A DNA stretch of 64,000 nucleotides from Clostridiales bacterium Firm_16 (GTDB lineage Bacteria > Bacillota > Clostridia > Saccharofermentanales > Saccharofermentanaceae). Shown here piece by piece: positions 165-17,827 of the stretch (positions are counted from its first letter, which is position 1; every line of letters starts with the position of its first letter). The translations under genes and the position numbers were made by a program. The notes under the pieces are model-generated. The model saw nothing but the letters and a program-made list of their open reading frames with translations. It had not been told where the DNA came from and ran no database searches. The DNA is taken from the NCBI GenBank assembly GCA_001604185.1, contig LVAV01000111.1, positions 1 through 64,000 of the forward strand. Reading direction: 5' to 3'.

Positions 165-2495
165 TTATTTCTTCGGTGTCGCGTTGACTACGGAACTGTA
201 GTTACTGTAGTACTTCGTTCCGTTGATCTCGACATAAGCACGAACCTTGAAGTAATACTTCGTTCCGGTGGTCAATCCCGGGCAGGCACGGCTGGTGGTC
301 GTCACGGTTCCGAGTTTGGAATAGGTTCCGGTTGCAGATGTCGCACGATAAACCTCGTAGCCTGTTGCTCCGGCAACGGCATTCCAGGAAACCGTTACCT
401 TCGTTGCGGAGGAAACAGTAGCCTTCACACCGCCAGGTGCTGTCGGCTTCGGCATAGCACTGACTACTGAACTGAAAGCACCGTAGATTCTGGTTCCGTT
501 CACTTCCTTGTATGCACGAACCTTATAGTAGTAAGTCGTTCCTGCCGTCAATCCGGTGCTGACACGACTGGTCTCGGTCACAGATCCGATGGCAGTAAAC
601 GTACCGGTAGCGGAGGTGGATCTCAATACCTGATAGCCTGTAACGCCACTTACTGCACTCCAGGAGATCTTGATTCCTGTAGTGGTCTCCGGTACAGCCT
701 TCACATTAGAAGGTGCAGCCGGCTTCGGAGCAGCATTTACAACAGTACTGTAATCGCCATAGACTTTCTTACCGCTTACTTCTTTATACGCACGCACCTT
801 GAAGTAATAGGTCGTTCCTGTGGTAAGACCCGAGCAGACACGGTTTGTTCCGGTAACGGATCCAACTGCAGTGAAAGTACCTGTCGAGGAAGTTCCTCTC
901 CATACCTGATATCCGGCTGCCCCACTTACTGCATTCCAGGAAACATTTACACTGGTGGCAGATTCAGAAACGGCCTTCACACCTGCAGGTTTCGCAAGCA
1001 AGGTCTCTGCACTGACTACTGAACTATAGTCTCCGTAAACCTTCTGACCTTCTACCATCTTATAAGAACGGACTTTGTAATAGTATGTCGTTCCGGCTGT
1101 AAGACCTGTACTTACACGACTGGTCGTTGTCACGGAACCGATAGCTGTAAATGTACCGTTGGCAGAGGTACCTCTCCATACCTGATATCCGGCTGCATCA
1201 CTTACTGCATCCCAGGATACTTTGATGCTGCTGGCAGATTCTGCAACGGCTTTCACATTCTCCGGCTTACCAGGTTTCGCGCTCGTAGGCGAAGGAGTAG
1301 GTGCTTTTTCAGCAACTATTAACTTTACGGTGATCCTTGAATGATTTCCGTACACCGGAGATCCTGCCGTCGGGTTCTGAGAAAGGACAGTGAAGTCTTT
1401 TTGGGAATCGTAATTCTGTACCCACGCAATCTCGATATTAACTTCATCGAAAACAGGGGATTGCAGTTCCTGCCTGATCTTCGTTTCAGCATCCTGATAG
1501 TACATACCGACTACATCTGGCATTGGTACCGCCGGATACGGTGTAGCAGCATGAGTAATGGGCGTCGGAATCGGTGTCCCTGAAATCGGTGTCGGAATCG
1601 GTGTCCCTGAAATCGGTGTCGGCCTCGGTGTCCCTGAAATCGGTGTCGGAATCGGTGTCCCTGAAATCGGCGTCGGCCTCGGGGTATTCATCGACGGAAC
1701 CGGTGTCGCAGGAACGTATTTCAATACTGTGATTTCCCCAACATATTCGGTATCAGGCTGATCTAAGACTGTTCCGGCTTCAGGAAACTGCGAAAGAATT
1801 AAGCCGTCCTTATCAGGAAAGGAAGTCGTAATCTCCTTTAAACCAAGCCCTAGGGAACTATGGTTATCATTCAGTGCTTCCAAAAGTGGATCAAGCACCA
1901 TAAGAGCCTCTTCAATGGTCAAATCAACAATATTCGGCATCACAAAAGATGGATTAAAAACGTATTCCCCTACTTCCAACTTTAAAAAATATTCGGAATC
2001 AAGCTCCATGACTGTTCCGGCTTCAATATCCTGCGAAATAACAATGCCGTCCTGACTTGGATCGTGAGTCTCAACATCATCTATATAAACACGTAAACAG
2101 CCCGAATTATCATACATTGCTAACGCCAATGGATGAAGCACAATAAGAGCCTCTTCAATGGTCAAATCAACAACATTCGGCATCACTACAGTCGATGCAG
2201 GTGTGGGTGTGTACTTGCTTGTCGGTGACGGCGCATGCGGCAGTGTTACCGTCGGAACCGTCGGAGTCGGTGTGTACTTGCTTGTCGGTGACGGCCGATT
2301 CGGCGTAGTCGGTGTAGGTGTTGTTTTGTACAAATTCAGTCCCTGGCCATCATCCGGTGAAACAGTCTCAACGATGGAAGTCTTCTCACTTGCTGCCAGA
2401 ACTTTCCCCTTCGGCATAGACCCAACCGGGAATAGCGTGATCAGAAGTGACAAAACCGTACTGATGCCTATCGTCGACACAAGTCGATTTTTCAT
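165..2495 (-). CDS. Secreted protein with PASTA and fibronectin type III domains
   Basis: The gene encodes 776 residues with an N-terminal signal peptide (about 1-36) and no sortase motif. Pro/Thr-rich linkers (about 60-105 and 265-320) separate three PASTA-like domains with [16 protein letters not shown] and MPDVVGMY cores (about 105-180, 185-260, 322-400). Four fibronectin type III repeats of about 90 residues follow, each with a [12 protein letters not shown]-like core and a [10 protein letters not shown] strand. PASTA domains bind muropeptides or beta-lactams in Ser/Thr kinases and PBPs; here there is no kinase or transpeptidase, so a role in cell-wall attachment or matrix is inferred. 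I chose the ATG at 2495 because GGAGG lies 9 nt upstream; an in-frame TTG at 2501 is too close to it. The gene is followed by a terminator. Confidence 0.85.
1561..1690. repeat. 27 bp tandem repeat coding for a Pro/Thr linker
   Basis: About 4.7 near-identical 27 bp units encode the nonapeptide repeat PTPISGTP(I/R) inside the secreted PASTA/FN3 gene. Units differ mainly in an Ile/Arg codon. Such a repeat can change copy number by slippage without shifting the frame. Confidence 0.85.
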
Positions 2496-16302: not shown

Positions 16303-16572
16303 TCAGTCTTTCTCCACCAGCGTGAAGCCGCATTCTTCGGCCGCGTCGCGGAAGCATGCGAGTATTTTTTCGCCGTATTCTTCCAGGCAGAAGCGGAGGT
16401 TTGTCTCGTTAACGATCACGATGCTGGCTTCCTTCGGAAGTTCGCTGAGGCAGTCATACAAAGCATCCAGGTTGTGACCGAAATATTCCGGGAACTGCAG
16501 CTGCTCTTTGATCACGCGGAAAGCCACCTCTCGGCTGGTCATGTCTTTTCCATCAAGAAGATAAACGCTCAT
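16303..16572 (-). CDS. Barstar-family ribonuclease inhibitor
   Basis: This 89-residue protein has the usual barstar length and the key helix YFGHNLDALYDCLSEL (about 30-45). It carries the two acidic residues equivalent to Asp 35 and Asp 39 of barstar, which insert into the barnase active site. There is no signal peptide, so the inhibitor is cytosolic. The gene starts 2 nt after the barnase stop, with GGAGG inside the end of the barnase coding region, so toxin and immunity protein are co-translated. The pairing with a barnase directly upstream makes the function firm. Confidence 0.93.
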   Translation of the reverse strand: MSVYLLDGKDMTSREVAFRVIKEQLQFPEYFGHNLDALYDCLSELPKEASIVIVNETNLRFCLEEYGEKILACFRDAAEECGFTLVEKD

Positions 16573-16574
16573 AG

Positions 16575-17213
16575 TTACTCCTCCCCGTAAAGCAATGTAA
16601 AGGTTTCGTAGTGGTCACCGGTATAGTAGACCAGACCGTCGTTGGAGAATACGATTCGCTTGGCGCCACGGGATTTCTTGCCCTTGGTGTCGATATCGCA
16701 CTCATAGTATGTGCGTCCGCGCTTGCTCGGAAGCAGTCCCTCACGGTTACCAAAAACATCGCCCCCGATGCTGCATCCCGGGAAGAATTCGTCCAGCGAT
16801 CCGCCTTCCCATCCTCTGGCACGCGCATCCTTCTTCGTCACAAAATTGTTCGGCAGATGGCCGTATGTGTGTATGAACAGGGCAACATCGTCTTTGGATG
16901 TATACGCTTCATTCTCCTTGAGCGCGCCGTTCGTGGTTTCCGTAGTCGATTCCGTGGTTGCTTCCGTCGTGGTCTCGGTCGTAGCTTCTGTTGTGGATTC
17001 CGTGGTCGCTTCTGTCGTAGTCTCCGTGGCCGTAGTGGTCTCTTCCGTTGTCGCGGAAGTTTCCTTCGACTCGTCCTTCGAAGCTTCTGTCGTGGTCACC
17101 ATCGTCGTATTCTTCGTCGCGCTGGTTTCGGCCACCAGGCTACAGCCCGCCATGCACACCGTCATGACAAGAACACAGAGCAACGCAAATAATCTCATGA
17201 TTCTGTTTTTCAT
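16575..17213 (-). CDS. Barnase-type ribonuclease displayed as a lipoprotein
   Basis: The 212-residue protein has a lipoprotein signal peptide ending CMAGC (Cys 24), a Thr/Glu/Ser linker (about 28-93) and a complete barnase domain (about 98-212). All known catalytic positions are present: the Lys of VTKK, the Glu of YYECDI (barnase Glu 73), the two Arg of SRGAKR (Arg 83, Arg 87) and the His of GDHYETF (His 102). Barnases are normally freely secreted RNases; here the enzyme seems tethered to the outer face of the membrane. AGAGGG precedes the ATG. The barstar gene follows at once, and a palindrome array begins about 130 bp upstream. Confidence 0.93.
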   Translation of the reverse strand: MKNRIMRLFALLCVLVMTVCMAGCSLVAETSATKNTTMVTTTEASKDESKETSATTEETTTATETTTEATTESTTEATTETTTEATTESTTETTNGALKENEAYTSKDDVALFIHTYGHLPNNFVTKKDARARGWEGGSLDEFFPGCSIGGDVFGNREGLLPSKRGRTYYECDIDTKGKKSRGAKRIVFSNDGLVYYTGDHYETFTLLYGEE

Positions 17214-17344
17214 CGTTTATTCCCTCTTTTCTGGCTCTTCAGAGAATTCCCGGAAATGAGAGCCTTGGTGCTTTCTTGTCGTTCATGCTCCTCGTATGAT
17301 CATTTTGAAAAAGCCGGCATATCGTCTATAACTTATTGCTCATA

Positions 17345-17662
17345 GTAGGACGGAAATCCTGATATCTGCAGATCCGTCCTACGCTTTTAACGACAGTTCA
17401 GTCGAAATCCTGAAATCTGTGATTTAGACTGAAGTTTGGAAGCGACATTTCAGTCAGAATCTTAAAATCTGTGATTTAGACTGAACTTTGAAGGTGGTAT
17501 TTCAGTCTAAAATCCCAAATCGGCTGTTTCGACTGAAATACAAGGCCGATTTTTCAGTCGAAAATTCAAAAATCGTGATTTAGACCGAAAACGGGGCGTG
17601 AAAGTTCGGTCTAAAATGCGAAATCAGCGATTCCGACTGAAACCATACTTAAATCATACGAC
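17345..17662. repeat. Phased palindrome array 1 (six elements, 52 bp period)
   Basis: Six imperfect palindromes start at 17345, 17397, 17449, 17501, 17553 and 17605, exactly 52 bp apart. The first is 38 bp with arms GTAGGACGGA/TCCGTCCTAC. The other five are 37 bp with arms TTC(A/G)GTC and GAC(T/C)GAA around 23 variable bases that often repeat AAATC and GATTT. Spacers are 14-15 bp and unrelated in sequence. A lone ATACGAC arm follows at 17656, in the next phase within 1 bp. No gene with a ribosome site covers it. The arms resemble those of the array at 52064-52260. The function is unknown. Confidence 0.9.
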
Positions 17663-17827
17663 TCCAAATTTTCCGTGAAGAGCCTCCTTTCTTAAGTCCC
17701 GTACATTATAGACCAGTTCCCTACGAACGGCAAACGAGCGTCTGTGATAGGCAACGACGGTTCCGCCCCCTGCCATCACGCCTGCCATCACGCCCGGCAT
17801 CAAGCCCTCCAACATGCCCATCAACAA

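What the first reader, a model, noticed from the sequence alone, without database searches (positions are those of the whole stretch)
17345..17641. Array of six palindromes with an exact 52 bp period
Six imperfect palindromes begin at 17345, 17397, 17449, 17501, 17553 and 17605 with no drift. The arms (TTCAGTC/GACTGAA) are conserved, the 23 inner bases and the 15 bp spacers are not. 52 bp equals five helical turns at 10.4 bp per turn, so all sites would face one side of the DNA. Elements E and F carry A-to-G or T-to-C changes only at arm position 4. This fits a phased protein-binding array (partition, nucleoid or copy-control type) or a chain of RNA hairpins. It does not fit CRISPR, because repeats diverge and spacers are only 15 bp.
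Basis: seen in the sequence. Interest (0 to 1): 0.88.

Follow-up and report, generated by a model that had tools for sequence, protein, structure and literature searches.

The report
Transposon remnant with helically phased palindromes
The repeat is the inside of a small, gene-less mobile DNA element in a group of gut and rumen bacteria; its evenly spaced mirror-image sites seem to keep a spacing of whole turns of the DNA helix while their sequence changes from element to element, which hints at an unknown job at the DNA level.

Summary
The array is real, but only five of the six palindromes (17397-17641) carry the TTC(A/G)GTC arms, exactly 52 bp apart; the one at 17345 has other arms. The array is the interior of a 452-bp element, 17233-17684, with terminal inverted repeats and an 8-bp target duplication (7 of 8 match), 19 bp from the start codon of a barnase-like RNase gene. 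Its ends match those of an intact ~1.45-kb ISL3-family insertion sequence in relatives, so it is best read as a non-autonomous MITE; that mover was not found in this MAG. The genome holds three more copies of the array and elements of a sister type. In related Saccharofermentanaceae, elements with these ends carry similar arrays with other arms. Strong unit periods (11 clusters: 52-53, 64, 72-74, 83 bp) lie near whole helical turns; for the six clusters away from five turns P is about 0.001, with caveats on independence. Arms are more conserved than spacers, but neighbouring arms show no pair-specific compensation (30 tests), so selection for an RNA hairpin chain is not shown. Helical phasing gains support; partition or copy control does not. 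New variant of a known kind (MITE with tandem interior, as BOX and BrickBuilt). Function unproven.

The parts
17233..17684 (.). Non-autonomous ISL3-type element (MITE), 452 bp; left part of sister type I, right part of type II
   Evidence: ends found; left part matches C43, C40 and C6, right part C66, C2 and C13
17233..17255 (+). Left terminal inverted repeat, 5 mismatches to the family pattern
17662..17684 (-). Right terminal inverted repeat, 3 mismatches to the 23-base pattern (1 to the 21-base pattern)
17225..17232 (.). Target duplication, left copy TCTTTTCT
   Evidence: 7 of 8 match to the right copy; statistics
17685..17692 (.). Target duplication, right copy TCCTTTCT
17345..17382 (.). 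Palindrome A with foreign arms (type I unit)
17397..17433 (.). Unit B
17449..17485 (.). Unit C
17501..17537 (.). Unit D
17553..17589 (.). Unit E
17605..17641 (.). Unit F
17475..17511 (.). Stem in the alternative register, 11-bp arms
17527..17563 (.). Stem in the alternative register, 12-bp arms
17579..17615 (.). Stem in the alternative register, 11-bp arms, carries the position-4 change on both sides
16575..17213 (-). Barnase-like ribonuclease gene; the element ends 19 bp before its ATG
   Evidence: PF00545, E 3.7e-21

Best explanation
A transposable element without a gene (a MITE moved in trans by an ISL3-family transposase) inserted just upstream of the start codon of a barnase-like gene. 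Its interior is an old tandem array of units, each with two inverted 7-11-bp arms. Shown: ends shared with an intact ISL3 insertion sequence of relatives; 8-bp target duplications; dispersed copies; tandem inverted-arm interiors with other arms in relatives; arms more conserved than spacers. Supported statistically: unit period near whole helical turns (5, 6, 7, 8). Inferred: the arms act as sites on double-stranded DNA kept on one face of the helix, most likely bound or bent together by a trans-acting protein of host or transposon that tolerates drift of the arms; hairpins in read-through RNA, as in BOX elements, are a by-product or a second role.
For: MITE: ends, 7 of 22 two-ended elements with an 8-bp duplication at 7 or more of 8 matches against 0.70 expected, dispersed copies, ISL3 transposase between the same kind of ends in L069, L252 and L254, end pattern in 20 of 115 family genomes. 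Phasing: 11 clusters at 52, 52, 52, 52, 53, 64, 72, 72, 73, 74, 83 bp, P 0.0009-0.0016 for the six off five turns; no indel among 249 positions with 47 substitutions between window and C66. DNA sites rather than stems: arms conserved one by one but no pair-specific complementarity in 30 tests.
Against: No transposase of this IS in the own MAG at E<=1e-80. No binding protein identified. Arms differ between arrays of one genome, also between copies of the same array, which fits badly with one strict sequence reader. Only 37 of 115 scorable ends have a strong period; the 72-74 clusters may share descent; two clusters mix periods (52/62, 53/64); two arrays outside such elements have best lags of 81 and 91. 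One own-genome array (C24, L200) has no such ends within 900 bp. No consistent 10.4-bp A-tract signal.
Confidence: 0.55

Rival explanations
1. A selected chain of RNA hairpins: the element is co-transcribed as leader of the barnase-like gene (or tail of the gene upstream) and its stems tune mRNA stability, termination or translation, as discussed for BOX elements.
For: Both strands fold far better than shuffles (z -6.7 and -7.2); the element lies 19 bp from an ATG with a promoter-like site beyond its far end (2 such sites against 1.7 expected, so weak); the register across 15 nt has 3 pairs with changes on both sides, covariation score reached by 22 of 500 shuffles.
Against: No pair-specific complementarity over 15 arrays in two registers, lowest P 0.085; only four related sequences, and the other register scores 43 of 500; whole-turn periods have no obvious meaning for RNA; no Rfam match at the gathering score.
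Confidence: 0.2
2. A purely selfish MITE whose arms stay alike by template switching between inverted repeats during replication, with no function of the array.
For: Between window and C66 6 of 7 arm differences are the same transition at arm position 4 (about 5e-5 in a simple simulation), although both copies sit in one genome; homogenisation of inverted-repeat arms by template switching is described (PMC8604942, start of abstract seen).
Against: Does not explain whole-turn periods; neighbouring arms are not more alike than distant ones; the shared change could also reflect descent or selection.
Confidence: 0.2
3. A partition, replication-origin or copy-control site bound by a dedicated protein, as first proposed.
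For: Exact 52-bp phase and conserved arms.
Against: Dispersed, TIR-bounded copies with target duplications; neighbours are an aldo/keto reductase, barnase, barstar, a GTPase-like protein and one protein without a match.
Confidence: 0.03

Closest known systems
BOX elements of Streptococcus pneumoniae (PMC3049150, passages seen)
   Same: Small dispersed elements with a tandem interior (boxB copies) between fixed end modules, ends likened to those of an IS (ISSpn2), predicted stem-loops when transcribed.
   Different: Here an ISL3-type end, unit length about 52 bp or other whole-turn values, inverted arms that differ between elements, different bacterial class. No sequence comparison with BOX was made.
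BrickBuilt MITE of Porphyromonas gingivalis (PMC4596501, abstract and outline seen)
   Same: A MITE that contains a minisatellite; intergenic; several copies per genome.
   Different: BrickBuilt repeats are 23-nt head-to-tail copies without spacers; here units hold two inverted arms with diverging spacers.
BIME / palindromic-unit mosaics (mentioned in PMC3049150 passages; details recalled)
   Same: Repeated imperfect palindromes in regular arrangement between genes.
   Different: Here TIRs, target duplications and an ISL3 transposase in relatives; arms are not one genome-wide sequence.
ISL3-family insertion sequences (Pfam PF01610)
   Same: Terminal repeats of L069, L252 and L254 match the element ends; 8-bp duplications, recalled as typical of ISL3, found here.
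   Different: The element has no transposase gene and an unrelated tandem interior.

Membership tests
MITE (non-autonomous transposable element) | Terminal inverted repeats shared with an autonomous IS | tested here: met
   in relatives
MITE (non-autonomous transposable element) | Target-site duplication of fixed length | tested here: met
   8 bp; 7 of 22 elements at 7 or more of 8 against 0.70 expected; window copy 7 of 8
MITE (non-autonomous transposable element) | Short, no transposase gene | tested here: met
   452 bp; no ORF of 80 aa or more lies inside, one (16711-17259 +) overlaps the first 27 bp
MITE (non-autonomous transposable element) | Several dispersed copies | tested here: met
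   own genome C2, C13, C66 and C111 for the array; type I on C43, C6, C40
MITE moved by this ISL3 transposase | The transposase is present in the same genome | tested here: not met
   0 matches in G000 at E<=1e-80; its only ISL3 gene, on C53, is of another kind; the MAG is 97.6% complete and fragmented
BOX elements | boxA, boxB and boxC sequence modules | not tested
   no BOX sequences were compared
CRISPR array | Near-identical repeats with unique spacers of about 25-40 bp | tested here: not met
   repeated arms of 7 bp, linkers of 15 and 23 bp, non-arm unit identity 0.54
Partition or iteron locus | Neighbouring partition or replication gene | tested here: not met
   Pfam on five neighbours, four with matches, none of these families
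Known structured RNA | Match at an Rfam gathering score | tested here: not met
   0 in the window; only four sub-threshold microRNA models at E<=1
Selected RNA hairpin chain | Compensating changes between paired arms | tested here: inconclusive
   no P below 0.085 in 30 tests; weak excess on four copies

The most novel reading that the evidence does not exclude
A class of transposon-borne DNA arrays in which spacing is the conserved feature: inverted arms may take many sequences, alike within an element and different between elements, but the unit length must be a whole number of helical turns. A protein or a mechanical state of DNA that reads phase more than sequence would be selecting them.
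Probability: 0.22. Interest if true: 0.78.

Novelty: new variant of a known kind. Interest (0 to 1): 0.55.

Why it matters
The interior of a gene-less element is easily taken for filler. Here elements with one type of end carry tandem interiors whose arms differ widely while the strong periods sit near whole helical turns. If that holds in a larger sample, the question what such an interior does becomes directly testable, and array copies with different arm versions in one genome give a natural record of how inverted repeats stay alike.

Tried and rejected
CRISPR and decayed gene: rejected (divergent spacers; no ORF of 80 aa or more inside). Rfam: nothing at the gathering score; four sub-threshold microRNA models. 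Hairpin compensation: my first impression that the register across 15 nt was proven by compensation did not survive permutation, though weakly favours it. A-tract curvature: the 10.4-bp harmonic of AA/TT is the strongest of 13 harmonics in 2 of 9 arrays only. Empty site: 11 close orthologues (85-88% identity) of the aldo/keto reductase gene have no barnase or barstar match in the flanks fetched, so no clean empty site could be shown. An apparent case of identical arms with unrelated spacers (L168 against L179) was an orientation error of mine; in the right orientation the arrays are 89% identical over 274 positions. The shared change of type I arms (C43 against C6) is weak evidence because those units are near-identical tandem copies.

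Literature (open-licence full texts only): ISL3 with MITE, 0 papers; Saccharofermentans with palindromic, 2 papers, unrelated by listing; ISL3 non-autonomous, 212 papers of which 15 were listed, none on this by title; tandem palindromes with helical turns, 6 papers, none on this by listing. I saw no description of these elements in these searches. Papers: PMC3049150 and PMC10969869 passages; PMC4596501 abstract and outline; PMC8604942 start of abstract in a listing.

Full report
OBSERVATION. The window holds five copies of TTYRGTC-N23-GACYGAA at 17397, 17449, 17501, 17553 and 17605, exactly 52 bp apart; 100 dinucleotide shuffles of the 64 kb give none. The sixth palindrome of the finding (17345-17382) is real but has other arms, GTAGGACGGA/TCCGTCCTAC, and belongs to another repeat.

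THE ELEMENT. A search of the own MAG (3.72 Mb, 117 contigs) finds the array part again on C66, C2 and C13 at 81-82% identity, and the left part with palindrome A on C43, C40 and C6 at 77-91%. The last set are elements of a sister type I; the window element joins a type I left part to a type II right part, with the junction between two units and the 52-bp step kept. The flanks show shared ends, GGCTCTTCACGGAANNCTTGG and its inverse: 15 matches in the own genome with up to 3 mismatches, against 1 for the reversed control; at least two (L037, L038) look like chance matches in coding DNA. In the window the ends are 17233 and 17684. The 8 bases outside are TCTTTTCT and TCCTTTCT. Over 22 two-ended elements (the 24 pairs less two nested ones), 7 match at 7 or more of 8 bases against 0.70 expected from shuffled pairings, none of 3000 shuffles reaching 7; the mean match also peaks at length 8 (z 4.9; 3.3 at 9, 2.7 or less elsewhere). 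Fifteen of the 22 show no clear duplication.

THE MOVER. In relative G019 a 1452-bp unit with the same kind of ends holds a 460-aa ISL3 transposase (PF01610, E 1.7e-57). Relatives of it at E<=1e-80 occur in 9 of 115 family genomes, and two more are bounded on both sides by these ends (L252 and L254, 0 and 3 mismatches; the L252 protein was confirmed). None is in the own MAG; its one ISL3 gene (C53) is of another kind and I saw no such ends near it. The MITE is therefore filed by its ends and target duplications, not by a mover in the same genome.

DISTRIBUTION. The end pattern occurs in 20 of 115 family genomes with up to one mismatch (control 0) and in 29 of 115 with up to two (control 1), in 2 of 5 genera. 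Named records with a slightly different pattern gave 62 stretches, titled Clostridiales, Clostridia, Saccharofermentans, Mageeibacillus, Candidatus Scatonaster, one Lachnospiraceae and one Ruminococcaceae; where the title names a sample it is sheep or goat omasum, yak rumen or horse faeces. Candidatus Scatonaster is placed in the Saccharofermentanaceae. The exact arms of the finding in tandem occur in 1 of 59 genomes searched, the own one.

OTHER ARRAYS. A blind search for 7-mers repeated in both orientations shows that elements with these ends elsewhere hold arrays with other arms: AGGCCTA (52 bp), GTCAACAGA (51-53), ACCACAGA (53 and 64 alternating), GCATTAC (53), AGTCAGAC (52), AATTCCG (73), TATACCA (52), ACGGACA (74) and others. 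The lists also hold irregular chance-like hits. In 20 sampled 20-kb stretches of three genomes four weak hits appeared, against 1-3 per 400 kb in five simulations of a third-order random model; none is a regular alternating array, though one has a 52-bp step. An own-genome array on C24 (L200, 13 arms, 52-53 bp) has no such ends within 900 bp, so arrays are not strictly confined to these elements.

PHASE. Of 146 distinct ends, 115 could be scored and 37 had a unit period with z of 4.5 or more; these fall into 11 clusters by sequence similarity with median periods 52, 52, 52, 52, 53, 64, 72, 72, 73, 74 and 83 bp. The mean cosine at 10.4 bp is 0.90. For the six clusters away from five turns P is 0.0009 at 10.5 bp and 0.0016 with the pitch free between 10.2 and 10.7. 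An earlier hand-listed set gave P 0.0016 for five families. In 40 further stretches fetched after that, the eight loci with z of 4.5 or more had 52, 52, 53, 72, 72, 74, 74 and 83 bp. Cautions: the 72-74 clusters may share descent; the first cluster joins types I and II (52/53), another mixes 52 and 62, another 53 and 64; some scored stretches had one end only and may run past the element; 78 of 115 ends have no strong period; two arrays outside such elements have best lags of 81 and 91; single steps of 48 and 50 bp occur.

ARMS. Window and C66 arrays differ at 47 of 249 positions without an indel: 7 of 70 arm positions, 40 of 179 others (P 0.030; 5e-5 if arm position 4 is set aside). Six of the seven arm differences are the same transition at arm position 4. 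Against C2 the alignment has gaps, one a 4-base deletion. Unit-to-unit identity is 0.94 in arms and 0.54 outside in the window array, 0.91 and 0.52 in C66; in four arrays of G132 it is 1.00/0.84, 1.00/0.86, 0.87/0.48 and 0.92/0.65. Yet adjacent arms complement each other no better than distant ones: 15 arrays in two registers (2 of the 17 arrays had too few pairs), no P below 0.085. On the four own copies the 15-nt register has 89% paired cells and a covariation score reached by 22 of 500 shuffles, the 23-nt register 85% and 43 of 500: too few sequences to decide. By eye, arms of the own genome's array kinds share a CNGTC core; this was not tested and may be common descent.

CONTEXT. The element ends 19 bp before the ATG of a barnase-like ribonuclease gene (16575-17213, minus strand) with a barstar gene behind it. 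The inner copy of the target duplication is part of the purine run before that ATG, and a promoter-like site (10 of 12 matches; no more such sites than chance) lies just beyond the far end, 17733-17705. If used, the element would form the leader of that mRNA. This is inference; no expression data were available.

JUDGEMENT. Identity as an ISL3-end MITE is well supported. How the interior works is open. Whole-turn spacing and independent arm conservation point to double-stranded DNA and a bound protein; arm differences within one genome argue against one strict sequence reader; template switching could explain a shared arm change but not the phase; RNA hairpins form in prediction (z -6.7 and -7.2) but selection for them is not shown.

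Noticed in passing
L111 750-952, L077 1270-1460, L093 125-230, L079 about 1520-1600, L134 4580-4830: Other inverted-arm repeats lie just outside ends of the ISL3 insertion sequence in G007, G019 and G034, as if it inserts beside such arrays. No control was run.
   Followed up: partly
window 16303-17213 (-): A secreted-looking barnase-like ribonuclease with a Thr-rich linker (PF00545) followed by a barstar-like gene (PF01337) directly downstream of the element; absent beside the aldo/keto reductase gene in 11 of 11 close orthologous loci examined.
   Followed up: partly
L003 about 1365-1408 (own genome C2): The left target copy of this element lies in the T-run of a terminator-like hairpin; several other target duplications are runs of T or A.
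   Followed up: no
L172 and L170 (G132): Arrays with ACCACAGA arms alternate unit lengths of 53 and 64 bp, a difference of about one helical turn.
   Followed up: partly
L205 1650-2060 (own genome C96): A type I-like array with a large internal duplication and no close terminal repeats.
   Followed up: no
window 1557-1676: A 27-bp tandem repeat, 4.4 copies, 92% matches, inside the large minus-strand ORF 165-2501.
   Followed up: no
L036 about 750-1500 (own genome C98): A long degenerate short-period repeat (GTCGGTGT... and GCCTTCTTCGTC...) close to a contig end, next to a terminal-repeat match.
   Followed up: no
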